DNA of 33,211 nucleotides from Candidatus Zixiibacteriota bacterium (GTDB lineage Bacteria; Zixibacteria; MSB-5A5; GN15; FEB-12). The translations under genes and the position numbers were made by a program. The notes beneath the pieces are model-generated. The model had not been told where the DNA came from and made no database searches. It worked only from the letters and a program-made list of their open reading frames with translations. This document shows positions 350 through 33,211 of the stretch, in pieces (the first letter of the stretch is position 1; every line of letters begins with the position of its first letter). The stretch lies in NCBI GenBank assembly GCA_034439475.1, contig JAWXAN010000066.1, forward strand, positions 1 to 33,211, in the 5' to 3' direction.

Positions 350-1492
350 ATGAAAATAGCAGTTATTGGCGCAGGGCTCATGGGACGCGCCGCCCTTTAT
401 GATCTCTGCCAAGCCGAGGGCGTTACCGGAACCGGGGTCTATGATATTTCGCCGACACTTGCCGCCGAAGTCGCAAGCCGATATGGGGACGCCAACACAA
501 TCCATGACCAGCTCGATGCTGGCAATGAAGAGCAGGCCTTCGGCATCCTCAAACGTTACGATGTTGCAGTTTCGTGTGTGACCTACAAATATAACCCCGG
601 TTTGACCCGCGCGGCTATCAAAGCCGGGTGTCATCTGGTTGATCTTGGCGGCAACAACGATACCGTGCGGCAACAAATAGCCATGAATGACGAAGCCGAA
701 AAGGCCAATGTCATAATTGTTCCGGATTGCGGCCTTGCGCCGGGGATGGTGTCCATTATCGCCGCTGACGGCATCTCCAAATTCGACAAAGTTCGTTCGT
801 TAAAAATCCGCGTGGGTGGCTTGCCGCAATCACCGCGCCCGCCGCTCAATTATCAGATGGTTTTCAGCGCCGAAGGTCTTATCAACGAATATTGGGAGCC
901 CTGTATAATTTTGGAGAATGGCGTCCATAAGACTGTGAATCCAATGTCCGATATTGAAGCGCTGGAGTTTGACGGCATCGGTGAACTCGAGGCCTTTTAT
1001 ACTTCCGGCGGGACATCGACATTGCCAGACACCTATCAGAATGTCATCGATTTTCTTGATTACAAGACCATACGATATCCAGGCCATTGCAAACTGATTA
1101 AGCCGATGCTGGAGATCGGTCTTGCATCGCGCAAACCTGTTTCAGTGAACGGTCAAATGGTTGAGCCTCGCGCGGTACTCAAAGCTGTGCTCGATCAGAA
1201 TCTTTCATTCGGTGATTTAGACTTGGTTCTTGTCCGGCTTACCCTCGAAGGAACCAAAGCTGGGAAAGAGAAAAGAGTTGTCTATGAAATTGTCGACCGA
1301 CAGGAGACACGAACCGGGCTCACTGCTATGATGCGCACAACTGCATTTCCGGCCGCGATTATTGCATGGATGGCTGCCGCAGGTCAGGTTTCAGTTCGGG
1401 GAGTGAAACCGCAGGAAGTGGCGATAACGCCATCGCTTTTTATTCCACAACTCAAAAAGCGCGGGATAAATTTGACAGTCAAAGAATCTTAA
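350..1492 (+). CDS. Saccharopine dehydrogenase-family NAD(P)-dependent oxidoreductase
   Basis: This 380-residue protein opens with a Rossmann nucleotide-binding motif, VIGAGLMGRAALYDL (residues 4-18). It contains the family-typical stretch DCGLAPGM (residues 126-133), found in saccharopine dehydrogenases and L-lysine 6-dehydrogenases. Length and layout (N-terminal NAD(P) domain, then the substrate/dimerisation domain) fit the short bacterial members, which act in lysine or related amino-acid metabolism. The substrate cannot be read from sequence. The ATG follows an AAAAGGA site at 9-nt spacing and a clear promoter, so the start is well supported. Its TAA overlaps the stop of the convergent pseudopilin gene by four bases. 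No other lysine-pathway gene is nearby, so it appears to be monocistronic. Confidence 0.85.
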   Translation: MKIAVIGAGLMGRAALYDLCQAEGVTGTGVYDISPTLAAEVASRYGDANTIHDQLDAGNEEQAFGILKRYDVAVSCVTYKYNPGLTRAAIKAGCHLVDLGGNNDTVRQQIAMNDEAEKANVIIVPDCGLAPGMVSIIAADGISKFDKVRSLKIRVGGLPQSPRPPLNYQMVFSAEGLINEYWEPCIILENGVHKTVNPMSDIEALEFDGIGELEAFYTSGGTSTLPDTYQNVIDFLDYKTIRYPGHCKLIKPMLEIGLASRKPVSVNGQMVEPRAVLKAVLDQNLSFGDLDLVLVRLTLEGTKAGKEKRVVYEIVDRQETRTGLTAMMRTTAFPAAIIAWMAAAGQVSVRGVKPQEVAITPSLFIPQLKKRGINLTVKES

Positions 1493-2241
1493 AAGAGATC
1501 GGTCGGGAAGGTCACTTCCAACTTTACGGTCTTGCCCGGATAGACAGCGATCGGATAGCTCACCGTATCAGTGGCCGGAGTGTAGATAAAGCGAAGCTCG
1601 CGGTTTCCAATTGGTATATTGCTGAACGAGAAATTACCTTTGTTGGTCGGATTGGTCGAGGCTGTCGTTGTGCTTCCTGCACCATTGGGAAATGTCAAAA
1701 GAATGCGGATGGAATCCTTGTAAATGGAGCCGGGGATTGTTTTGTTGGCGTCGGTGACTATACCGGAAATAGAGTTAGCAAGCAGGATCGCTGATGATGA
1801 AGCAAACAGTTTATCAATGGTTGAACCTGAGCCTGTCGAAGTGATCGTTGTTCCTGAATAGGAATAGTTCGATCCCCAGCCATCTTTTTTGTAGTCGGTC
1901 GGTGCGATTCCGGATTCCATATACGGCCCATCCCAAGTTGTGTATCCGCCTGGATTCGTTACGAGCGCATCGAGATTAGTAGGAAGCGAGCCAATATCCC
2001 CCACGTACCCAAAGTCAGCTCGGCTGCCCAAAGCGTACGTTTCAGGATTGCCAACGATGGCTTGTGCAAGCTGATCAAGTTCCTTTTTAGTCTGCTCGCT
2101 TTGTGCGGTCGAAATGGCCGAGCCCATTTTTTGCGTTGCCACACCCGCCATGATTCCCAAAATAATTATCACGAGAATGGTTTCAATAAGTGTAAAACCG
2201 CGTTGGCTGGACGCCGACTGCCGCTGTAAAAAAAGATTCAC
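1489..2241 (-). CDS. Type II secretion/pilus pseudopilin with fused C-terminal beta domain (fourth of four paralogs)
   Basis: The 250-residue product has a class III prepilin signal: a 15-residue leader ending in QRG, then FTLIE with the +5 glutamate and a roughly 20-residue hydrophobic helix. Prepilin peptidase should cut after that glycine. The middle resembles the GspG pseudopilin fold and carries the cluster signature GYVGDIGSLPTNL...NPGGY.TW.GPY. A C-terminal part of about 95 residues (ISGIVTD...PNGAGS...IPIGNRELRF) resembles a carboxypeptidase-regulatory/Ig-like beta sandwich. I chose the GTG at 2241 because it overlaps the preceding gene's TGA as GTGA, typical of translational coupling. 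A TTG at 2253 is the alternative. It is last in the operon and converges on the dehydrogenase gene. Confidence 0.85.
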   Translation of the reverse strand: MNLFLQRQSASSQRGFTLIETILVIIILGIMAGVATQKMGSAISTAQSEQTKKELDQLAQAIVGNPETYALGSRADFGYVGDIGSLPTNLDALVTNPGGYTTWDGPYMESGIAPTDYKKDGWGSNYSYSGTTITSTGSGSTIDKLFASSSAILLANSISGIVTDANKTIPGSIYKDSIRILLTFPNGAGSTTTASTNPTNKGNFSFSNIPIGNRELRFIYTPATDTVSYPIAVYPGKTVKLEVTFPTDLF

Positions 2242-2996
2242 GGCGACACCCAAAGATTTGTAGAAAATGCGTGTTCATTATAGACTGTCGATTTGGGGGT
2301 TACTGTGACAAACCGCGATGTTGTATCATTGAGCGGTTTATAAATTACCTGCAGGTCATGATTTCCGATTGGGATGGAGTCGAAAGTGAAGAAACCGCCT
2401 GCGTTAGGCGTCTTCGTTTTCGTTATTGTACTGCCCGTCCCGTTTGGGATGGTCAGACGGAGGGTGATCGAATCTTTATATGTGCTTCCCGGGGGAGTGC
2501 CATCCAGATCATAGAGAATCCCGGTAACGCGATTAATTGTCAAATCGGACGATGCCTCCGCGACCTTTCTTACGATCGAAGTCCCGCCGCCTGTGGAGGT
2601 AATAGTCGTACTGCCGAACGTATAATCCACTCCCCAGCTGTCTTTTTTATAATCATCAGCTACCTGGCTGAAGCGATTAGGGATGTACGGTCCCCGCCAT
2701 GTTGCATAGCCGCCTGGATTCGTGTAAAGCGCATCGAGATTTGCCGGAAGTGCCCCGACATCCCCAACATAACCAAAGTCAGTTCGTACTGAGTTATTGG
2801 CAAGGGTTGCGTTTCCTGCAATTGCCGTTGCAAGGGCATCAAGTTCAGCTTTTGTTTCCTCGACTCTGGAAATATCACTGATTGTTTTCCCTGAACGAAG
2901 CGCGACTGTGGCAAGAATGCCGGCGATGACAATTGCAATCACCAGCTCAACTAATGTAAAACCTGAGTTTTCACTTACTGGTGATATTACGGGCAT
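2238..2996 (-). CDS. Pseudopilin with fused C-terminal beta domain (third of four paralogs)
   Basis: The product is 252 residues. A 12-residue leader ending SENSG precedes FTLVE (Glu at +5) and a hydrophobic helix, marking a prepilin-peptidase substrate. The middle repeats the family signature (DFGYVGDVGALPANL...NPGGYATWRGPY) followed by a YKKDSWG stretch, comparable to the conserved end of GspG-type pseudopilins. The C-terminal domain (VTGILYDLDGTPPGSTYKDS...IPIGNHDLQVIYKPLNDT) matches those of its neighbours. The ATG at 2996 has an AGAGGTG site upstream and overlaps the previous gene by about 10 bases. Close paralogy suggests tandem duplication. No secretion ATPase, inner-membrane platform or secretin gene lies in the window, so the partner machinery is unknown. 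Confidence 0.87.
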   Translation of the reverse strand: MPVISPVSENSGFTLVELVIAIVIAGILATVALRSGKTISDISRVEETKAELDALATAIAGNATLANNSVRTDFGYVGDVGALPANLDALYTNPGGYATWRGPYIPNRFSQVADDYKKDSWGVDYTFGSTTITSTGGGTSIVRKVAEASSDLTINRVTGILYDLDGTPPGSTYKDSITLRLTIPNGTGSTITKTKTPNAGGFFTFDSIPIGNHDLQVIYKPLNDTTSRFVTVTPKSTVYNEHAFSTNLWVSP

Positions 2997-4144
2997 GTTG
3001 GCAGCACCTCTGTAAAAGTTGACCCATCGGAAAGTAATATGGTGATTGTTCGACCAGACATGGAGACGCGCCCCCCACCGCCGTTCGTGTTATTGCTGCG
3101 AAAGTCTTCAATTCTCAACTGGATGCTGGACCCAGAATTGATGGTCTGTGCAGACGAGAATGTGTATGTCGTGCCTGATACTCCTCTCGGGGAACCAGCC
3201 AAATTAAAGACATTATTCGCGTTCCATACAATCTGGCTATAGTATGCGGTTGGAGCTGCCCATGTAACCCGTATGGTCGAAATGGTTCGAGATGCGCCGG
3301 TATTGTTTACAATCCACAGTCGCAAACTTGCGCAGCCGGTGCCATTGACGGTGTCAGAGCTGGCAACAAATGTAAGTGAGCTTGAGGTTGAACCAAAATG
3401 CGCTGATGCGAATTTTACATCAAGTCCCGGGCTATTTTTGTGCCGGGGCAGGACAGTGAAATTTCTTTTGAGCGTATCGTTTAAAGGCTTGTATATGACT
3501 TTAAAATCCCGCACCCCGGCAGGAAGCGAATCGATTGTGAATGCGCCCGATGAGTTGGGATTGACTGTCCGTGTAATATTTCCCGATGCCCCTCGAGGAA
3601 AAGTCACCACGATGTTCACTGAATCCTTCTTAATCGAGCCCGGGAGCGAATCATTCTTGTCTTTAATAATGCCTGTGACCGTGTTCAGAAGATAGTCAGA
3701 TGAGGCATCTGCGATTTTTTCGGTGATGGCGCTTCCACCACCTGGGGAAGTAATGGTCACGCCGCCGGAGTAGGTGTAGGCCGCGCCCCAGTCGTCAAGT
3801 CTGTAAGAAACCGTGTCCTGAGTAAATTCGTTTTGAATATATGGGCCATCCCAGGTTGGCAAGCCCCCGGGATTTGTATAGAGGGCATTGAGATTGACTG
3901 GGAATGCGCCGATATCGCCGACATAACCAAAATCGGCGCGTTGACCGTCCTGCACTCTGTCAGGGTCGCCGGTTATGGCGCGACTGAGCATTTCCATCTC
4001 TCGCTGGGTGCGAACGCGTTTGGTATCTTCGACAATGACCGTCATAGATTGCATGGCGAATCCGAGCATCACCGCGATGATGACCATGACGACCGTCAAT
4101 TCGATAAGACTGAACCCAGCCTGATTTCTACGCATCAATTTCAT
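2987..4144 (-). CDS. Pseudopilin with two C-terminal domains (second of four, enlarged)
   Basis: This is the longest paralog at 385 residues. A short leader MKLMRRNQAG precedes FSLIE and a hydrophobic helix. Next come the cluster signature (DFGYVGDIGAFPVNL...NPGGLPTWDGPY) and the shared beta domain (VTGIIKDKNDSLPGS to about residue 245). It then carries about 137 extra residues absent from the other three copies: Ser/Thr/Asn-rich, predicted beta, with cysteines in NGTGCASLRLW and at the very end (LPTCP). The two cysteines may form a disulfide, which is inference. The ATG at 4144 is preferred over an adjacent GTG at 4147. The gene starts a few bases after the upstream stop, so the four genes very likely form one transcript. 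This copy may be a tip or specialised subunit. Confidence 0.85.
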   Translation of the reverse strand: MKLMRRNQAGFSLIELTVVMVIIAVMLGFAMQSMTVIVEDTKRVRTQREMEMLSRAITGDPDRVQDGQRADFGYVGDIGAFPVNLNALYTNPGGLPTWDGPYIQNEFTQDTVSYRLDDWGAAYTYSGGVTITSPGGGSAITEKIADASSDYLLNTVTGIIKDKNDSLPGSIKKDSVNIVVTFPRGASGNITRTVNPNSSGAFTIDSLPAGVRDFKVIYKPLNDTLKRNFTVLPRHKNSPGLDVKFASAHFGSTSSSLTFVASSDTVNGTGCASLRLWIVNNTGASRTISTIRVTWAAPTAYYSQIVWNANNVFNLAGSPRGVSGTTYTFSSAQTINSGSSIQLRIEDFRSNNTNGGGGRVSMSGRTITILLSDGSTFTEVLPTCP

Positions 4145-4149
4145 CACTA

Positions 4150-4938
4150 CTACCAGACTTTCCGGAAAAGTTGTATCAGCAAGTTATGGTCGGAGCCAGC
4201 TTCGATATTGGCAGTTCGCGATAGTGTGTCGTTGTTCGGAGTGTACACTACACGCAGAGTATGAAGTCCGATCGGGATGGAGTCGAACTGGATTCTGCCA
4301 TTGTAATCAGGAAATTTGATTTTGGTTGTGGTCGATCCGGTTCCGTTTGGGATTGTCAGCAGGGCTTTGACTGAATCTTTGTATGTCGTGCCGGGGGGAG
4401 TGTTATTCAGGTCGGTAATATTGAGGACAACTCGGTTGTACAGAAGATGATTTATCGAGGAAGCAAGCGTCTGGGTCATCGCGCTTCCTCCGCCAGTCGA
4501 TGAAATTGTCGTCCCGCCAGTGTACGAATAGCCATTTCCCCAGGCATCGTTCAAGTATTCGCTATTTCCTCCTCCCGTCGAAAAGGGGTCGGAGATATAC
4601 GGCCCATTCCATGTTGTATAGCCTCCGGGATTTGCCACAAGCCCGGTCAAGTTGACCGGCATGGCGCCAATATCGCCGATATAGCCATAATGTGTCCTGA
4701 CTCCGCCAGAGCGAATGTCGGGATTGCCGATAACGGCATACGCAAGCCGCTTCATTTCTTCGCGGGTTTCCTCAACTCGTGAAATTGTCTGCGTCGCTTT
4801 CATCGACTTGGCCGCAATTGTGCCAAGAATGCCAATGATGATCATCACGACCACCAATTCGATAAGCGAGTAGCCCTTGCTGCGGCGAATCGATGCGTAA
4901 AATGAACGCTCTAATCTCTTATTTTTATGAACAGCCAT
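4150..4938 (-). CDS. Pseudopilin with fused C-terminal beta domain (first of four paralogs)
   Basis: The product is 262 residues. A long basic leader of 22 residues ends RRSKG before YSLIE, with Glu at +5 and a hydrophobic segment VVVMIIIGILGTIAA. The signature reads HYGYIGDIGAMPVNL...NPGGYTTWNGPY (about residues 83-114). The C-terminal part has the same PPGTTYKDS...IPIGLHTLRVVYTPNNDT pattern as its neighbours. I chose ATG 4938; an earlier TTG at 5004 would start inside the terminator of the upstream ferredoxin gene. No Shine-Dalgarno precedes ATG 4938. A TATAAA (4945-4950, minus strand) ends six bases before it, so this transcript could be leaderless. It is the first gene of the pseudopilin operon. 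Confidence 0.85.
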   Translation of the reverse strand: MAVHKNKRLERSFYASIRRSKGYSLIELVVVMIIIGILGTIAAKSMKATQTISRVEETREEMKRLAYAVIGNPDIRSGGVRTHYGYIGDIGAMPVNLTGLVANPGGYTTWNGPYISDPFSTGGGNSEYLNDAWGNGYSYTGGTTISSTGGGSAMTQTLASSINHLLYNRVVLNITDLNNTPPGTTYKDSVKALLTIPNGTGSTTTKIKFPDYNGRIQFDSIPIGLHTLRVVYTPNNDTLSRTANIEAGSDHNLLIQLFRKVW

Positions 4939-4993: not shown

Positions 4994-5029
4994 AAAAAAA
5001 GCAAAACCGGCGGTTAAGCCCCGCCGGTT
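4994..5029 (-). terminator. Rho-independent terminator after the ferredoxin gene
   Basis: The 9-bp stem AACCGGCGG / CCGCCGGTT with a 7-nt loop (5005-5029) is followed on the minus strand by TTTTGCTTTTTTT. It lies just past the ferredoxin stop and separates the Fe-S group from the pseudopilin operon. A second small inverted repeat, AATTCTC / GAGAATT (5040-5060), sits between the stop and this hairpin. Confidence 0.85.
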
Positions 5030-5065
5030 CTGCTTAGAGAATTCTCGGTTTATGAGAATTAATAG

Positions 5066-5386
5066 TTAGAACGTATCATCGTCCCATTTTAATCCCGCTT
5101 TTTCAGGGATTCGGACAATTAAATCTTCTTTGATAATACACTGGCAGGCCAGGCGCGAAGTGTCGGTAAGACCTTCGGCTTCATCGAGCATATCCTGCTC
5201 ATCCTCGGATTTTTCCGGAAGCGTATTATAGCCAGTTTCGACGATGATATGGCATGTCGAGCAGGCGCAATTGCCGCCGCAGTTGTGGTCTATCTGGATA
5301 TTATTATCCAATGCCGCATCGAGCACAGCCGTGCCGTTGGAGACATTCACTTCTATATTTTGCGGCAAAAATAAAACTTTCGGCAT
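5066..5386 (-). CDS. 2Fe-2S ferredoxin (adrenodoxin/Isc type)
   Basis: This is a small plant/adrenodoxin-fold ferredoxin of 106 residues. Its cluster ligands are in HNCGGNCACSTC and LACQC, i.e. C-x5-C-x2-C with a fourth cysteine about 36 residues later, the usual ISC ferredoxin pattern. It would carry single electrons in the cytoplasm. The acidic stretch between the ligands (EKSEDEQDMLDEAEG) matches the partner-binding helix of this family. I prefer the ATG at 5386, which sits seven bases after GAGGA; the ATG at 5392 is too close to that site. Downstream of a DUF2480-like gene and an A-type Fe-S carrier, it probably serves Fe-S cluster assembly. A strong terminator follows. Confidence 0.9.
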   Translation of the reverse strand: MPKVLFLPQNIEVNVSNGTAVLDAALDNNIQIDHNCGGNCACSTCHIIVETGYNTLPEKSEDEQDMLDEAEGLTDTSRLACQCIIKEDLIVRIPEKAGLKWDDDTF

Positions 5387-5457
5387 TTCCATATCCTCAA
5401 AAATCTCGAAATAGCATCCTTATAACGGGCGCAAAGGTATGAAATTCGGTTAAAGAA

Positions 5458-5730
5458 TCAAGTTTTTTTCGTCTCTGCTGTTCTCTGAGAACGATGAACG
5501 ACAAGATTGTCATGTTCGTTTCCGTATCGAATTGACTTAGCAAACGGCATGAGTTTGGAGGTTAACAACATGTAGACCCAGGGCGGCATTATTGTCGAGC
5601 AGCCCCGAACCAAGACCATTTTTCCGTCGAATTTGGACCACTCCAACTCATTTACCTTTGCAATGAAATCGTCCTCGCGGAAAATTCCATCGGTGAGAAA
5701 ATCTTTGGGGTCAACGGTTTCGTAGGTCAT
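5458..5730 (-). CDS. Short DUF2480-like protein
   Basis: A 90-residue protein. The segment VDPKDFLTDGIFREDDFIAK, followed by W-x-x-FDGK and VLVRGCSTIMPPWVYMLL, closely resembles the conserved pattern I recall for DUF2480 (Asp-Phe-Leu, tryptophan, Cys-Ser, then P-x-W-x-Y-M-L-L). DUF2480 proteins are found mainly in Bacteroidetes, often beside Fe-S assembly genes. Those proteins are about 160 residues with two related halves, whereas this one carries only one unit. No function is established that I can name. Placement between a ferredoxin and a HesB/IscA gene supports an Fe-S role. ATG 5730 is preferred; a GTG at 5766 would add 12 residues. Confidence 0.65.
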   Translation of the reverse strand: MTYETVDPKDFLTDGIFREDDFIAKVNELEWSKFDGKMVLVRGCSTIMPPWVYMLLTSKLMPFAKSIRYGNEHDNLVVHRSQRTAETKKT

Positions 5731-5815
5731 AGGAATCTTCGGGGCTAAAAGATCATTCCTGCGCACATTAAAATCTAAAAAGACCCCATGCGCGTCAGTG
5801 GGCGCTTATCGAAAA

Positions 5816-6184
5816 TTAGCAGGTGAATGATGTCCCGCATCCGCAGGAACGTTTGGCGTTCGGGTTGTTAAACTGAAACCCTCCGCCCATCATGCCGCCT
5901 TTGTAGTCGAGGGTCGTCCCGGCAAGGTAGACTAAGGCCTTCAGATCAACGCGAACCTTGACACCGTCGAAATCAAATTCACGGTCGAAAGCATTTGGTT
6001 CATTATCGAAGGACATGGTATAGGACATTCCCGAGCATCCACCCGAGGAAATGCCAAGGCGAAGAAACAGATTGTCTTTTGCGTCTTCTTCGCTGAAAAG
6101 CCGTTTCACTTCCTCAAGCGCTCCGGGCGTCACAATGATGATTTGGTCAGTCGGGGCTGGTTTCGTCAGTGTCTGTTCAGACAT
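5816..6184 (-). CDS. A-type iron-sulfur cluster carrier (HesB/IscA/ErpA family)
   Basis: A 122-residue cytoplasmic scaffold/carrier that passes Fe-S clusters to apo-proteins. The three invariant cysteines are present with canonical spacing: Cys50 in SSGGCSGMSY, and Cys114 and Cys116 in SCGCG near the C-terminus. Other family features are the FLRLGI strand and the FQFNNPNA stretch before the CGCG tail. The N-terminal extension MSEQTLTKPAPTDQ is unconserved. The ATG at 6184 has a good AGGAG site on the minus strand. The gene heads a co-directional group with the DUF2480-like gene and the ferredoxin. IscA, ErpA and SufA cannot be told apart from sequence alone, so no symbol is given. Confidence 0.92.
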   Translation of the reverse strand: MSEQTLTKPAPTDQIIIVTPGALEEVKRLFSEEDAKDNLFLRLGISSGGCSGMSYTMSFDNEPNAFDREFDFDGVKVRVDLKALVYLAGTTLDYKGGMMGGGFQFNNPNAKRSCGCGTSFTC

Positions 6185-27696: not shown

Positions 27697-28716
27697 TTAC
27701 TTCAGGAGGATCATTTTTTTGCTCTGATGAGTCTGTTCCGTTGTCAGTCGATAGAAATAGACGCCGCTCGCAAGCGCTGAGGCATCGTATTGGATTTGGT
27801 GTTCACCGGCGCCGAGACGTCCGAGATCCATTACTTCCACTGTCTGTCCGATGACATTAAATATCTCCAATTGAGCAGTTGTGCTCGATGGGATATTGAA
27901 TGCGATAGTTGTTGTGGGATTGAACGGATTTGGATAATTCTGCATAAGAGTAAAACCACTCGGAAGCGTGATATCGGGATCGCCTGCATCAGTAATTGTG
28001 AAGAAGAGATCTACTGAGCCAGTTAACTTTACGGTCGGATCGGCTGCGGAAATGACTTCGTAGTCAATTGTAATTACCGTGTCGCCGCCGCCAGTAAATG
28101 TCGGGGTTTCAATTTCGAAGTAGAGCGAGATAATCTCCGATGGGTCGGCATAGAAGGCTGAATCCTGTGGAAGGGTCACGAAGTTTCCATTATCAGCAGA
28201 GGCATTGATGTCATAGAAGTCTATCCCGTTGCCATCGTTTCTAATTTGCATCTCAAATTTGACCGTGTCATCGTACGTGCCGGCGCGATTGGTCGGAAGC
28301 GTTATGGCTGACAGGCCAACAGTCGCGGTTGCGGACAGGCTGACTTGCTTGAGAGACTGATTGGTCCATGTGGCGTCGCCCGAACTAACGGTTGATAGAC
28401 GTCCGTTAATCCTAAAAGTAATCATTTGGCCGTGGATTGCGCCCTCGTCTTCAGGCGAATTGCTATCATCACCATACACGGGCATGTAACCAAATGATCC
28501 GGCGGTATGCACGACAAAATAGCCGCAAAGGATACCATCCGGATCGAACGCGCTTACAAGCGTTCCGACAGGCAGAGGTCGACCGTTATAAGTAGAGACG
28601 CCATCCTGAAAGGAGCAGAAGAAAGGGGTCGGATGAATTTCCTGCGCCTGACCAGTGTTTGAGACGAAAAGAAGGGCAGAGGCGGCGATAAGAAAACTGA
28701 AAAAAGTTTTTTTCAC
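27697..28716 (-). CDS. Secreted protein with Por/T9SS type-A-like C-terminal sorting domain
   Basis: A 339-residue exported protein. It has a signal peptide (MKKTFFSFLIAASALLFVSNTGQAQ) from a GTG start at 28716. An N-terminal module (about residues 30-130) contains PLPVGTLVSAFDPDG and SFGYMPVYGDD, and is shared with the next protein. A beta-rich middle follows, without a family I recognise. The C-terminal domain of about 85 residues carries MQNYPNPFNPTTTIAF and ASGVYFYRLTTEQTHQSKKMILLK, the hallmark of FlgD-Ig-like/type A sorting tails. Such tails direct outer-membrane translocation by the type IX machinery in Bacteroidetes; here the machinery is not in view. It lies downstream of the giant paralog with a hairpin between, and a terminator follows. 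Confidence 0.82.
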   Translation of the reverse strand: MKKTFFSFLIAASALLFVSNTGQAQEIHPTPFFCSFQDGVSTYNGRPLPVGTLVSAFDPDGILCGYFVVHTAGSFGYMPVYGDDSNSPEDEGAIHGQMITFRINGRLSTVSSGDATWTNQSLKQVSLSATATVGLSAITLPTNRAGTYDDTVKFEMQIRNDGNGIDFYDINASADNGNFVTLPQDSAFYADPSEIISLYFEIETPTFTGGGDTVITIDYEVISAADPTVKLTGSVDLFFTITDAGDPDITLPSGFTLMQNYPNPFNPTTTIAFNIPSSTTAQLEIFNVIGQTVEVMDLGRLGAGEHQIQYDASALASGVYFYRLTTEQTHQSKKMILLK

Positions 28717-28787: not shown

Positions 28788-31700
28788 TTACTTCAAGAGC
28801 ATCATCTTCATCGTCTGCGAGAATGATCCGGCTGTCAGACGGTAGAAGTATACACCCGAGGCAACCGTTTGACCGGCAGAGCCCTTGCCATCCCAGACCA
28901 CGGTATTATTGCCAGCCGAAGCACTTCCTTCGAAAGGAATAGCAATCAGCTCGCCAAGAACGTTAAAGACTTCGACTTTAGCGAGTCCGGCATTGGCCAA
29001 ACTGTAACTAATGGTAGTCGAGGGGTTGAACGGGTTCGGATAGTTCTGGGCTACGGAGTAGCTTTCCGGCAAGGATGAACCGCCAGCAGTCGATAGATTC
29101 GACACTTCGATTCTGTCTCCATTGCCAGACCAGACAAAGGTTTGCTCGGTTTCCACTCCATCGATGGCCAGGTGGAATTGCTGTCCGGGAACCAGACCAA
29201 CAGTCTTCTGACCATCGGCATCAGCATAGACCGGCATAAAGCCGAACTGGCCGTCTGTCTTCAGGATAAATCCTCCGAGCAGGTCACCAGTCTTGGAAAG
29301 GGCGGTAATAGTTGAACCGGCCTTCACTGCGCTATTATTCAATTGCAGTTTTTGTGAATAAACGTTCACCCAGGCTGTTGTCGGAGTAACACCTTCCGAA
29401 GCCGTTGCTACCTGAGCTACAGTATTATATCTAAGAGCAGGGGATGCATTATCGCCGCCCGGATAGATGAGGTCTTCCGCAGCGTTTACCTTGATCCAGT
29501 AGCCGTTACATGGGGCCATTTCATCCAAGGTATTGAATATCGGCGAGCCCGGCTGGTAGATTAGGATACCATTGCTCCAGCCGTAAGCAAAGAGAAGCTT
29601 ATCGCTAATCGAAGCCAAGGCATCGACCGGGGCAAGTACAACCGAAGGAAGGTAGGAGACCAAATTCCATCCGGTTGTGACCGGAATCGGGGTATTGACC
29701 GCAGCAGGAACGCCTTCGATTTCGAGGCTGAATGCCTGACCTGCTTTGACCTTTATCCAGTAACCGCTGAGATGGTCAACATACCAGAGGGTTGAGAACT
29801 GGGGCAGTTCTGGATCGTAGGTGAGTCCGCCCTGTTCAAAGCCAAGAACGACATCAATCTTATCCCAGTAAGCGCCAAGGATAGACTCGATACCGTCGGT
29901 TTCGGTGTTGACTGACCAAGATACAAGGTTCCAGCCTTCGGAGAGGGCGCAGATTTTTGTGATTGTCGCGCCAGCTTCAAGACAGACCTCAACCGGAGGA
30001 AAAGCGTCGGCGGGATAGGTAACATCGCCATTAGTAAGAGCTTCATCGCCGTTGACTTTGAAGGTGATGACATCACCAGTAGTGGCGCCGTCATCGTTAT
30101 ACGGGAAGCCTTCGCTTGCGCGATAGACCGGCATGAAACCGTATTTGCCGGCTTCAGTTACCCAGAACTGACCGACAAGCAAGCTGCCGGTGTAGGCTTC
30201 GACGACTGTTCCGACCGGCAGAGGTGCGTCAAAATAGGTGTTGCCGTCGCAATAGTAATCGACCCATTGGCTGGTCTGTGTGAATGTCGCAACTGGTGTA
30301 AGAATAATCTCCACACCTTTTGCTCCAAAGTTCAGATCAAGAAGCTCACCGGAGTAATAGCCTTCTTTGTAGGCGTAGAGATCAAAGGGCACCGCAGTGA
30401 AGTCAGTGAAAGCAAAGCCGCCTGAGCTTGAGGAAGTAGTCGTCTGGATAGGCGAACCATTCGGGAAATCGGAATAGAGAAGGACTGTTGCCCCTTCTAT
30501 TTCGTTTCCTTCATCGTCGACAACTACACCGCAGACATAGTTGACGGACGTATCAACAACCACTCCACCGGCAATAAAGACCGGTGTCTCGGTTTCGTTG
30601 TTACCGCAGTTGCGGGCAAACCATAGGGAGCTGTCACCGCCTGCGGCTAAAGTTATCGGATAGAATCCGGCTGTGGCATCGTAGGCGATAGAGAAGTTGA
30701 GATTTAACCAGTTACCTGATCCCGGGGCAATCGAAGCCTGACCATCGGTGTCGACAGTTAATTCGACCGTGAGCGTGCCATTGTTGATATTGGCTTGTTT
30801 GATGGTGACATATTCGACACGTGAGTCAGAATAATCAACCGACTCAAGCGACAACCAAGCAGAGTTCCAACTGAGTTTGGCGTACATCATTGTTGTCGGG
30901 CAGCTATTGCTGAAATCAACAGGGACTGAGACCGTCATTCCGGGAACAGCCGGAACGTTCGAGACGCGAACCGTATCGCTGCTAACGGCTCCGGTCACAA
31001 TTGTATTCACACAGTATGTGACTTCGGAGTAGCAGAGATCTTCGCCTGCAGTATTACCGTATTCGGTGTAGAAAGTCGTGTACGAAGTAAAGGTGCCAGC
31101 ATCGGCAAAAGTTGCTTCGTATGAGACTGTCAATTCAGTCGGGGTTGTTCCGCTTGTCGGGGTGACATCAAAGCCAGCGCCGATCTCGGAATTCCAATCG
31201 AGTTCGTCAGGGGACAATGAACTTTCGAGCGTCGGTGTCGCGCTAAAGGAAGCAGCAACGCCTTCGGTTGTATACAGCGTGACAAAAATGGTGTCTGAGA
31301 AGCTTCCGCTGTCATTCACGATAGTCAGGGAGGGGCAGTCAAGAAGCGTCAGATTTACATACACCCACTGGACGCCATTGGTGACCGGTTCACCCGCATC
31401 CGAGTACACTTTTATAGAGTCACGATATGTGCCAGCAGACAATGCGTCAAAGTCGACAAAGACATTTACTGAGTCAGGGGTTGTGCTGAATGCTTTATCG
31501 AGCGAAATCCAAGTAGACGTCTCCAAGAGCTTGAAGGGTAGTGCGCCGCCATCGAGTTCTGTAACCCGGAATGACTGGTTGGGAGGATTCGATTGGCCGA
31601 TATAGGCTGAGAAGTTAAGCACAGTCGGCTCCACTACCATAGTCATCGGAACAAATACCTCTGTGACGGTAAGGATAACAACGACTGACCGTGGTGAGTT

Positions 31701-33211
31701 ATCGGCATCGACCGATGCAACTTCTACGGTGTCGGCATACACGCCTGCGGTTAGGCCAGTAATGTCAACGTTGACAGCGACTGAGTCAGGTGTTGTTCCA
31801 TCGGCATCAGTAAGTGAGAGCCAAGCCGCACCATCGACGGAGGTGTAAGCTATTGCTTCCCCGCCAAGTTCTGTGACGTCAAACCACTGCGAAACCGGGT
31901 TTGAGGCGCCTTGGACAGCATTAAAATCCAAAGTAGACGGAGCGACCACAAGTGATTTGGTGTCTGCGGCTGAAACAGTCAGCTTTACGATCACCTTTTG
32001 AGGAGAATTGACCGTCGCACCTGAGGACACAGTTATAGAATCAACAAGTACTCCGGCAAGAAGACCGGCGATGTTGACCGATACCTGGGCTTCATCGGGG
32101 GTAGTACCCGACACACCGGTAAGAGACAACCATGTTGCGGATGTAGTGGCAGTGAAGCTGACCGGGTCGCCATCGGTATCAACGTTAAAAGATTGGTTGA
32201 GCGGATTGGCTTCGCCGACTACGCCAGTGAAGAATAAAGTATCAGGCTCGACAACCAAATCAATTGGTGCGGGCGTGATGGTGAGGTTTATAGCAACTTT
32301 ACGCGGTGAATTGTTCGCCGCGCCTGAAGAGACCGTAACGGTGTCGGTATAACTTCCGTCAGCCCGGCCAGTAATGTTTATATTTACACCAACTGAATCG
32401 GGCGTTGTACCGTTAGGATCAGTTAAAGTAATCCATAATGATGGCTCGGATGACGAATAGGCAATAGCGCCTCCACCAGCCTCGGTTACATCAAACCACT
32501 GACTCAGAGGGTTTGCGCCGCCTTCGGTCGCCGAAAAGTTGAGTACAGTTGGCGCAACCACGAGCACTTTCGGGGCAGCTGCGACGTTAAATGTGACTGG
32601 CACTTTTATCGGCGAGTTGTCCGCAGTAATGGCTGTGACAGTCACAGTATCAGTGTATGTTCCCGGAGCCAGGCCTGCGAGATTGGCATTGACGGTAATA
32701 GTTCCGGGGGTTGTACCGTTTGGCGTTGTCAATGACAGCCATGTTGCAGTTTCGGCAGATGTGTAGGCTGTCGCGATAGCGGCGGCCTCGGTCACATTGA
32801 GAATCTGTGCTGCTGGATTTGCGCCGCCTTGGGTGGCTGCGAAAGTCAGCGAACCAGGACCAACAACAAGTGTGGCACCCGGTTCAGGACGATTCGGATC
32901 AAAAATGATGAGCTTTTGCCCCCAGCTCGGTTTAAAGGATAGCCCAACCAAGGGGACAAATTTCATAATCGCGCCGGAGGAGAAGGCATTGGTATCAATG
33001 ACAATGGAGTCATTAACCGTCCAGCCCGGCACATCCCAGTTGTAGGTCGCTATAAGCTGCCTGGTGACCGACGGCGCCAAGCCATTGCCAAAAATGCGCG
33101 CTGCACCAAACAAGAATTGATTGTATAAGTTAGTCGAATCAATATTGTTATTGCGATAGACAAATTGGGACAGATTAAATGCGGCAATTGCCGCGGGCGA
33201 AACCACAGCTG
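28788..33211 (-). CDS. Giant modular secreted protein with C-terminal sorting domain (5' end outside the window)
   Basis: At least 1,473 residues are visible. The reading frame is still open at the window edge, where the apparent start (a GTG at 33206) looks internal. Order, counted from that edge: a nonrepetitive part (1-112); five BACON-like beta repeats of about 102 residues (113-623); further beta sequence; a cohesin-like domain (about 741-883, PGMTVSVPVDFSNSC... SWNSAWLSLESVDY); a carboxypeptidase-regulatory-like domain (about 889-972, CGVVVDDEGNEIEGATV); a PLPVGTVVEAY...KYGFMPVY module; two GWNLVS...GYWIKV modules (about 1088-1246); a second FGFMPVY module; and a YPNPFNP sorting tail. 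It suggests a surface adhesin or carbohydrate-binding scaffold. No catalytic domain is seen. Confidence 0.85.
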   Translation of the reverse strand, partial: AVVSPAAIAAFNLSQFVYRNNNIDSTNLYNQFLFGAARIFGNGLAPSVTRQLIATYNWDVPGWTVNDSIVIDTNAFSSGAIMKFVPLVGLSFKPSWGQKLIIFDPNRPEPGATLVVGPGSLTFAATQGGANPAAQILNVTEAAAIATAYTSAETATWLSLTTPNGTTPGTITVNANLAGLAPGTYTDTVTVTAITADNSPIKVPVTFNVAAAPKVLVVAPTVLNFSATEGGANPLSQWFDVTEAGGGAIAYSSSEPSLWITLTDPNGTTPDSVGVNINITGRADGSYTDTVTVSSGAANNSPRKVAINLTITPAPIDLVVEPDTLFFTGVVGEANPLNQSFNVDTDGDPVSFTATTSATWLSLTGVSGTTPDEAQVSVNIAGLLAGVLVDSITVSSGATVNSPQKVIVKLTVSAADTKSLVVAPSTLDFNAVQGASNPVSQWFDVTELGGEAIAYTSVDGAAWLSLTDADGTTPDSVAVNVDITGLTAGVYADTVEVASVDADNSPRSVVVILTVTEVFVPMTMVVEPTVLNFSAYIGQSNPPNQSFRVTELDGGALPFKLLETSTWISLDKAFSTTPDSVNVFVDFDALSAGTYRDSIKVYSDAGEPVTNGVQWVYVNLTLLDCPSLTIVNDSGSFSDTIFVTLYTTEGVAASFSATPTLESSLSPDELDWNSEIGAGFDVTPTSGTTPTELTVSYEATFADAGTFTSYTTFYTEYGNTAGEDLCYSEVTYCVNTIVTGAVSSDTVRVSNVPAVPGMTVSVPVDFSNSCPTTMMYAKLSWNSAWLSLESVDYSDSRVEYVTIKQANINNGTLTVELTVDTDGQASIAPGSGNWLNLNFSIAYDATAGFYPITLAAGGDSSLWFARNCGNNETETPVFIAGGVVVDTSVNYVCGVVVDDEGNEIEGATVLLYSDFPNGSPIQTTTSSSSGGFAFTDFTAVPFDLYAYKEGYYSGELLDLNFGAKGVEIILTPVATFTQTSQWVDYYCDGNTYFDAPLPVGTVVEAYTGSLLVGQFWVTEAGKYGFMPVYRASEGFPYNDDGATTGDVITFKVNGDEALTNGDVTYPADAFPPVEVCLEAGATITKICALSEGWNLVSWSVNTETDGIESILGAYWDKIDVVLGFEQGGLTYDPELPQFSTLWYVDHLSGYWIKVKAGQAFSLEIEGVPAAVNTPIPVTTGWNLVSYLPSVVLAPVDALASISDKLLFAYGWSNGILIYQPGSPIFNTLDEMAPCNGYWIKVNAAEDLIYPGGDNASPALRYNTVAQVATASEGVTPTTAWVNVYSQKLQLNNSAVKAGSTITALSKTGDLLGGFILKTDGQFGFMPVYADADGQKTVGLVPGQQFHLAIDGVETEQTFVWSGNGDRIEVSNLSTAGGSSLPESYSVAQNYPNPFNPSTTISYSLANAGLAKVEVFNVLGELIAIPFEGSASAGNNTVVWDGKGSAGQTVASGVYFYRLTAGSFSQTMKMMLLK
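31340..32870 (-). repeat. Five tandem BACON-like domain repeats
   Basis: The five units average about 306 bp (102 residues). Each begins LVVxPxxLxF and continues with a GxxNPxxQ element. Each has a W-[LI]-[ST]-L strand (sATWLSL, sLWITL), TTP-D, a [GA]-x-Y-x-D-[ST] turn and a hydrophobic V-x-[LV]-T end. The fifth is the most divergent. The pattern fits BACON (all-beta) domains, often linked to carbohydrate or mucin binding, though other Ig-like families cannot be excluded. Confidence 0.75.

What the first reader, a model, noticed from the sequence alone, without database searches (positions are those of the whole stretch)
1489..4938. Operon of four paralogous pseudopilins with a fused C-terminal beta domain
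Four consecutive genes, overlapping or nearly touching, each encode a type IV prepilin signal (G|FTLIE, G|FTLVE, G|FSLIE, G|YSLIE). Each also has a GspG-like middle with a near-invariant signature ([FY]GY[VI]GD[IV]G..P.NL..L..NPGG...W.GPY) and then a roughly 95-residue beta domain (PGS/PGT..KDS...PNG.GS/T...IPIG). A normal GspG ends after the middle domain. Standard T2SS/T4P operons have several different pseudopilins, not four copies of one fused type, and no ATPase, platform or secretin gene is adjacent. This could be a stand-alone pilus-like filament with decorated surfaces or a lineage-specific secretion pseudopilus.
Basis: partly seen in the sequence, partly recalled or inferred. Interest (0 to 1): 0.78.

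Follow-up and report, generated by a model that had tools for sequence, protein, structure and literature searches.

The report
Relocated modular pilins of Zixibacteria filament
Four neighbouring genes encode pilin subunits that each carry an extra binding-type domain; they are not a stand-alone filament but the displaced, specialised subunits of a pilus or secretion machine whose motor genes sit elsewhere in the same genome, and the arrangement recurs across a little-studied bacterial phylum.

Summary
In detail: four overlapping genes (window 1489-4938, minus strand) encode prepilins with a complete GspG-like core followed by an extra domain. AlphaFold and structure comparison make that domain a transthyretin-like (carboxypeptidase-regulatory-type) beta-sandwich, not the GspG beta region.

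The stand-alone reading is not supported. In 22 named contigs (other Zixibacteria, plus single Eisenbacteria, WOR-3, Latescibacterota and KSB1 records) one to three fused pilins lie within an operon of ATPase, platform, major pilin, unfused GspG-like pilin, FUSED PILINS, PilM/N-, PilO-, PilP-like genes and secretin. In the window's genome that operon is on another contig, without fused pilins. Over 97 genomes, fused and major pilin co-occur (76 both, 19 neither, 2 fused only, 0 major only).

The four are not interchangeable copies: a tree resolves four orthologous classes in fixed order A-B-C-D. Classes A-C often carry exchangeable C-terminal modules (including LamG lectin); class D does not.

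Best reading: heteromeric modular accessory pilins of an FCB-group type IV filament machine. Whether it secretes proteins or extends a surface pilus is undecided. Modular pilins are a known kind; this system I could not find described.

The parts
4150..4938 (-). Gene A: modular prepilin (G|YSLIE), GspG-like core + transthyretin-like domain; no tail module here
   Evidence: tree class A, +1 residue Tyr in all 33 class A rows
4153..4452 (-). Gene A, fused C-terminal transthyretin-like domain (boundary by alignment)
   Evidence: fold inferred from models of B and D
2987..4144 (-). Gene B: modular prepilin (G|FSLIE), core + transthyretin-like domain + extra tail module
   Evidence: class B; AlphaFold model mean pLDDT 91.9
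3395..3706 (-). Gene B, transthyretin-like domain (residues 147-250)
   Evidence: Z 9.5-10.5 to 5aq0, 2nsm, 6hif; rmsd 1.9-2.1 over 78-86 residues
2990..3388 (-). Gene B, tail module, beta-sandwich (residues 253-385), the commonest of several exchangeable tail types
2238..2996 (-). Gene C: modular prepilin (G|FTLVE), core + transthyretin-like domain; tail absent here although most class C relatives have one
   Evidence: class C; lengths
2241..2549 (-). Gene C, fused transthyretin-like domain (boundary by alignment)
1489..2241 (-). Gene D: modular prepilin (G|FTLIE), core + transthyretin-like domain; class D in four-gene clusters has no tail
   Evidence: class D; lengths; AlphaFold model mean pLDDT 90.7
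1492..1797 (-). Gene D, transthyretin-like domain (residues 149-250)
   Evidence: Z 9.7-11.0, rmsd 1.7-2.2
4999..5035 (-). Terminator-like hairpin (15 pairs + T run) that separates the upstream ferredoxin gene from gene A

Best explanation
Genes A-B-C-D are modular accessory (minor-type) pilins of a type IV filament machine whose motor and pore are encoded in trans on contig C7 (16788-24644: ATPase, platform, major pilin P0008, unfused GspG-like pilin P0007, PilM/N-like, PilO-like, PilP/GspB-like, secretin). Prepilin peptidase (C7:42572) matures them, their N-terminal helices let them join the filament built by that ATPase and platform, and the transthyretin-like domain (plus, on B here, a tail module) is displayed beyond the pilin body, probably at or near the filament tip as a heteromeric complex, to bind a ligand or substrate. 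In the arrangement found most widely the fused pilin gene lies inside the machine operon; in the window's family it lies apart and is duplicated into four specialised classes. Shown: domain make-up, four orthologous classes, operon linkage in relatives, co-occurrence. Inferred: shared assembly in this genome, direction of the move, tip position, ligand binding. Undecided: protein secretion (pseudopilus) or surface pilus.
For: Operon linkage: nine stretches from families f3, f4, f6, f7, f14, f18 have 1-3 fused pilins between the unfused GspG-like gene and the PilM/N-like gene; 22 of 73 loci from named contigs show machine genes beside fused pilins, including Eisenbacteria L124, WOR-3 L125, Latescibacterota L126 and KSB1 L127. 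Co-occurrence in the same 97 phylum genomes: fused pilin in 78, major pilin P0008 in 76; 76 both, 19 neither, 2 fused only, 0 major only; Fisher p 3e-18 (not corrected for relatedness), with concordant splits inside seven families (f2, f5, f7, f9, f14, f15, f16). By elimination: the other above-threshold prepilins of the genome sit in the C7 operon (2) or beside type IVa pilus-like genes or alone (C27, C24, C15), so no other accessory pilins are evident for the C7 machine. Nearest non-fused relative of the four is P0007 of the C7 operon. Four classes: A 100, B 100, C 84, D 98 SH-aLRT; order A-B-C-D in 24 clusters. Fold of the added domain. Exchangeable tails, including LamG lectin.
Against: No experiment. 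In the window's own family the two loci are unlinked (1.2 Mb apart in the single-contig genome G070), so use by the C7 machine rather than by the genome's type IVa pilus-like machine (PilB/PilT on C42) rests on relatives. A mixed filament is not excluded. Two genomes (G024, G075) have fused pilins and no detected P0008, though both hold the PilM/N-like gene. Tip position is inferred from other modular pilins, not shown. The trees were made by the quick method with SH-aLRT only.
Confidence: 0.85

Rival explanations
1. Sub-question of the best explanation: the machine is a protein-secretion (type II-like) system and A-D are a pseudopilus tip that recognises substrates, playing the part of GspH-I-J-K but evolved separately from a GspG-like pilin.
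For: GspG-like core (TIGR01710 E 1.3e-11 for D); platform closest to GspF (321 bits); PilP-like protein hits T2SSB; GspE-GspF-pilin order and no retraction ATPase recognised in the operon. In some clusters the last fused pilin lacks Glu5, as GspK does (GFSLVTIL, GFSLIGVL, AFALVGVL). The Bacteroidetes 'T2SS', also T4aP-like by phylogeny, affects cellulose use in C. hutchinsonii (PMC5553014, PMC6668835).
Against: No component reaches a curated T2SS equivalog cut-off; no GspC seen; secretin short (425 aa; STN and a weak Secretin_N match); all four window genes keep Glu5. The genome also has a type IX system (SprA, 30 sorting tails) that can carry secretion.
Confidence: 0.45
2. Sub-question of the best explanation: the machine is a surface pilus (MSHA/T4aP-like adhesion or sensing) and A-D with their tails are tip adhesins of differing specificity.
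For: ATPase closest to PilB in NCBIfam (604 against 544 bits for GspE) and among solved chains, with an MshE-type c-di-GMP motif over its cut-off (65.8 against 38); secretin closest to PilQ; major pilin closest to MshA and PilA chains, GspG last. Tails are swapped between species and include LamG lectin modules, sometimes behind poly-Gly runs, as in known modular adhesive pilins (PMC8179133).
Against: No retraction ATPase in the operon; a PilY1/PilC adhesin was not looked for; GspG-like cores and GspF-like platform.
Confidence: 0.45
3. A-D form an independent filament of their own.
For: No machine gene next to A-D in the window or in 51 of 73 loci.
Against: Near-perfect tie to the machine over the phylum and operon linkage in relatives.
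Confidence: 0.03
4. A-D are accessory pilins of the genome's type IVa pilus (PilB/PilT on C42) and not of the C7 machine.
For: Unlinked loci; pilins can be shared between machines.
Against: All linked cases join them to the C7-type operon; the T4aP-like genes have their own GspH/PilV/PilW-like pilins.
Confidence: 0.07

Closest known systems
Modular (bimodular) type IV pilins, e.g. S. sanguinis PilB/PilC (PMC8179133)
   Same: Class III signal and pilin module with an extra functional module at the C-terminus; PF13620 (the family that weakly matches here) is listed there among the 15 most frequent added modules.
   Different: Here four orthologous classes all share one added domain, sit in one operon in fixed order, and classes A-C may carry a second, exchangeable module.
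Bacteroidetes 'T2SS' (C. hutchinsonii; PMC5553014, PMC6668835)
   Same: FCB-group machine with secretin, ATPase, platform, GspG, divergent PilM/N/O/P-like genes and minor pilins; T4aP-like by phylogeny there.
   Different: Gene order differs and no fused transthyretin-like pilins are described in the passages read; no direct sequence comparison was made here.
Canonical T2SS pseudopilins GspG/H/I/J/K
   Same: GspG-like core; several different pseudopilins in one operon; in some clusters a last gene without Glu5 as in GspK.
   Different: All four derive from one GspG-like fused ancestor, none matches GspH/I/J/K above cut-off, and each carries an added sandwich domain.
Carboxypeptidase D/M/N transthyretin-like domain (5aq0, 1uwy, 2nsm)
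   Same: Fold of the added domain (Z 9.4-10, rmsd 1.9-2.2).
   Different: Sequence identity 11-20%; attached to a pilin, no peptidase domain.

Membership tests
Type IV prepilins (class III signal) | N_methyl motif with G|xxxxE and hydrophobic helix | tested here: met
   All four over the Pfam cut-off; helix 13-58 in B, 18-63 in D
Modular pilins | Complete pilin module followed by a separate extra domain | tested here: met
   unfused homologues end where the added domain begins
GspG (TIGR01710, PF08334) | Curated family cut-offs | tested here: not met
   TIGR01710 20.7-44.7 bits against 88.85; PF08334 met only by D, 22.8 against 21
T2SS | Components reach T2SS equivalog cut-offs (GspE, GspF, GspD) | tested here: not met
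   GspE 544/630, GspF 321/424, GspD 199.5/351 bits
T2SS | Distinct minor pseudopilins GspH, I, J, K | tested here: not met
   No such cut-off reached by A-D
T2SS | Secretes folded proteins across the outer membrane | not testable with these tools
   Needs secretome of mutants
T4aP | PilB/PilQ curated cut-offs | tested here: not met
   PilB 604/675.65, PilQ 205/284 bits, though these are the best-scoring models
T4aP | Retraction ATPase PilT with the system | tested here: inconclusive
   Not in the operon; PilT-like ATPases elsewhere in the genome (C42, C48)
Transthyretin-like / carboxypeptidase-regulatory fold | Seven-strand prealbumin-like sandwich | tested here: met
   VIA Z 9.4-10.0 to carboxypeptidase D/M/N domains in both models
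PF13620 CarboxypepD_reg | Gathering score 32.3 bits | tested here: not met
   14.7-20.1 bits in B-D, none listed for A; 15 of 57 relatives match at E<=0.01
Bacteroidetes 'T2SS' | Phylogenetic placement of ATPase and platform with the Cytophaga system | not tested
   No reference sequences at hand; resemblance rests on PMC5553014 and PMC6668835

The most novel reading that the evidence does not exclude
Zixibacteria and allied FCB phyla possess a previously undescribed type IV filament machine whose tip is a heteromeric set of transthyretin-fused pilins (A-D) that evolved independently of GspH/I/J/K by duplicating a GspG-like fused pilin, and that carries species-specific exchangeable binding modules.
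Probability: 0.4. Interest if true: 0.65.

Novelty: new variant of a known kind. Interest (0 to 1): 0.48.

Why it matters
It assigns an orphan operon to a machine and shows how filament subunits diversify: one fused pilin gene inside a machine operon becomes, in one lineage, four fixed classes in a separate locus, while other families seem to duplicate it on their own inside the operon. It gives a defined subunit set for testing how minor pilins specialise and what swapped tail modules bind, in a phylum for which my literature searches found no account of this machine.

Tried and rejected
Stand-alone filament: rejected. Chance or gene-calling artefact: rejected (conserved in 60 of 61 relatives). 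Ordinary GspG beta region: rejected by the models and by unfused homologues that end before the domain. PilM/N-like protein P0005 as a co-occurrence probe: too divergent outside the order and cross-hits the T4aP PilM, so P0008 was used. Function of neighbours: the locus lies in a conserved place between an ISC-type ferredoxin and a saccharopine-dehydrogenase-like gene (22-25 of the loci examined), judged positional, not functional. T9SS-type sorting tails as substrates of this machine: dropped, since the genome has SprA. Tail modules: Pfam finds only LamG (and DUF2341) in some; the commonest type gave no Pfam match alone; Arch_flagellin matches to six whole members were not seen in the isolated tails tested, and structure matches to archaeal pilin-type proteins were middling, so an archaellin link is not claimed.
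Full report
OBSERVATION. The window is a whole contig (C66) of a 2.66 Mb, 98.7% complete genome whose relatives are almost all Candidatus Zixiibacteriota. Four minus-strand genes, A (4150-4938), B (2987-4144), C (2238-2996), D (1489-2241), encode prepilins. All pass the N_methyl cut-off; T2SSG matches are weak and only D passes that cut-off; CarboxypepD_reg matches are sub-threshold. A strong terminator-like hairpin lies upstream of A.

ANATOMY. AlphaFold models built on alignments of natural relatives are confident: B, mean pLDDT 91.9, and D, 90.7. Both show the pilin helix, a short GspG-like strand region, then a separate seven-strand sandwich. Structure comparison puts that sandwich with transthyretin-like domains of carboxypeptidases D, M and N and similar domains (Z 9.4-11, rmsd 1.7-2.3 over about 80 residues). 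Unfused GspG-like pilins of the same machine end just where this domain starts, so it is a graft onto a complete pilin. Tail modules vary: an about 130-residue sandwich (as on B here), an about 165-residue module starting LRPxGxG, LamG lectin, and others, sometimes after poly-Gly runs. They occur on classes A, B and C. Class D proteins of the four-gene clusters are 240-254 aa without a tail; four longer proteins that score best to D come from divergent loci outside these clusters.

FOUR CLASSES, NOT FOUR COPIES. A tree of 147 proteins (core and fused domain only) gives four groups that follow gene position: A 100, B 100, C 84, D 98 SH-aLRT. 24 clusters read A-B-C-D; incomplete ones keep the same order, and a few have extra B copies. 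All 33 class A proteins start with Tyr after the cleavage site; Glu5 is kept in all four classes. In a second tree, operon-embedded fused pilins form a separate (weakly supported) group, and copies within f3, and within f6 and f14, cluster together, which suggests separate duplications.

THE MACHINE. The genome has one operon on C7 with ATPase, platform, two pilins (P0008, P0007), PilM/N-like, PilO-like, PilP/GspB-like protein and secretin, and one recognised prepilin peptidase gene. In relatives of other families, and in single records named Eisenbacteria, WOR-3, Latescibacterota and KSB1, fused pilins sit next to the unfused GspG-like gene of this kind of operon. In the window's family the two loci are apart, also in single-contig genomes (G070: 1.2 Mb), so this is not an assembly effect.

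CO-OCCURRENCE. Over the same 97 genomes of the phylum (at least 85% complete), the fused pilin is in 78 and the major pilin P0008, whose best matches are mostly 50-74% identical, in 76: 76 both, 19 neither, 2 fused only, 0 major only (Fisher p 3e-18). Relatedness inflates the p value, but seven families split concordantly. Two of the 76 (G005, G052) have only weak, partial P0008 matches.

WHAT KIND OF MACHINE. It matches no curated family fully. ATPase and secretin score best to PilB and PilQ, platform to GspF, none over its cut-off; the ATPase has an MshE-type c-di-GMP motif over its cut-off. Solved relatives of the ATPase are PilB first, of the major pilin MshA/PilA-type with GspG last. This mixed picture resembles the Bacteroidetes 'T2SS', which groups with T4aP in published trees (PMC6668835) and affects cellulose use in C. 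hutchinsonii (PMC5553014). I did not compare the sequences directly. Secretion and surface pilus remain about equally likely.

NOVELTY. Modular pilins are known, and PF13620 fusions are among the frequent ones (PMC8179133). What I did not find described (open-access library only) is this machine, its set of four orthologous transthyretin-fused pilins, and their separation from the operon. I file it as a new variant of a known kind.

Noticed in passing
window 28788-33209 and 27697-28716: Two neighbouring secreted-type proteins (1472+ aa, cut by the contig end, and 339 aa) end in T9SS type A sorting domains. The genome has a SprA homologue on C22 and 30 such tails, so a type IX system is likely.
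   Followed up: partly
window 350-1492 and 5066-6184: The pilin locus sits at a conserved place across the family: ISC-type ferredoxin, a 102-aa unknown protein and an IscA-like gene on one side, a convergent saccharopine-dehydrogenase-like gene on the other.
   Followed up: partly
L110:6962-7723, L116:7754-8602, L117:1373-2191: In some operon-embedded clusters the last fused pilin lacks Glu5 (GFSLVTIL, GFSLIGVL, AFALVGVL), as the tip pseudopilin GspK does.
   Followed up: no
L075:163-6534, L100, L106: Some genomes have amplified class B: L075 reads A-B-B-B-C-D.
   Followed up: no
L068:2278-4386, L078:2826-4637: Class B pilins of 703 and 604 aa carry LamG/ConA lectin modules, one also a DUF2341 domain.
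   Followed up: no
L016:4789-6531: The machine's ATPase carries an MshE-type c-di-GMP-binding motif over the curated cut-off, so assembly may be controlled by c-di-GMP.
   Followed up: no
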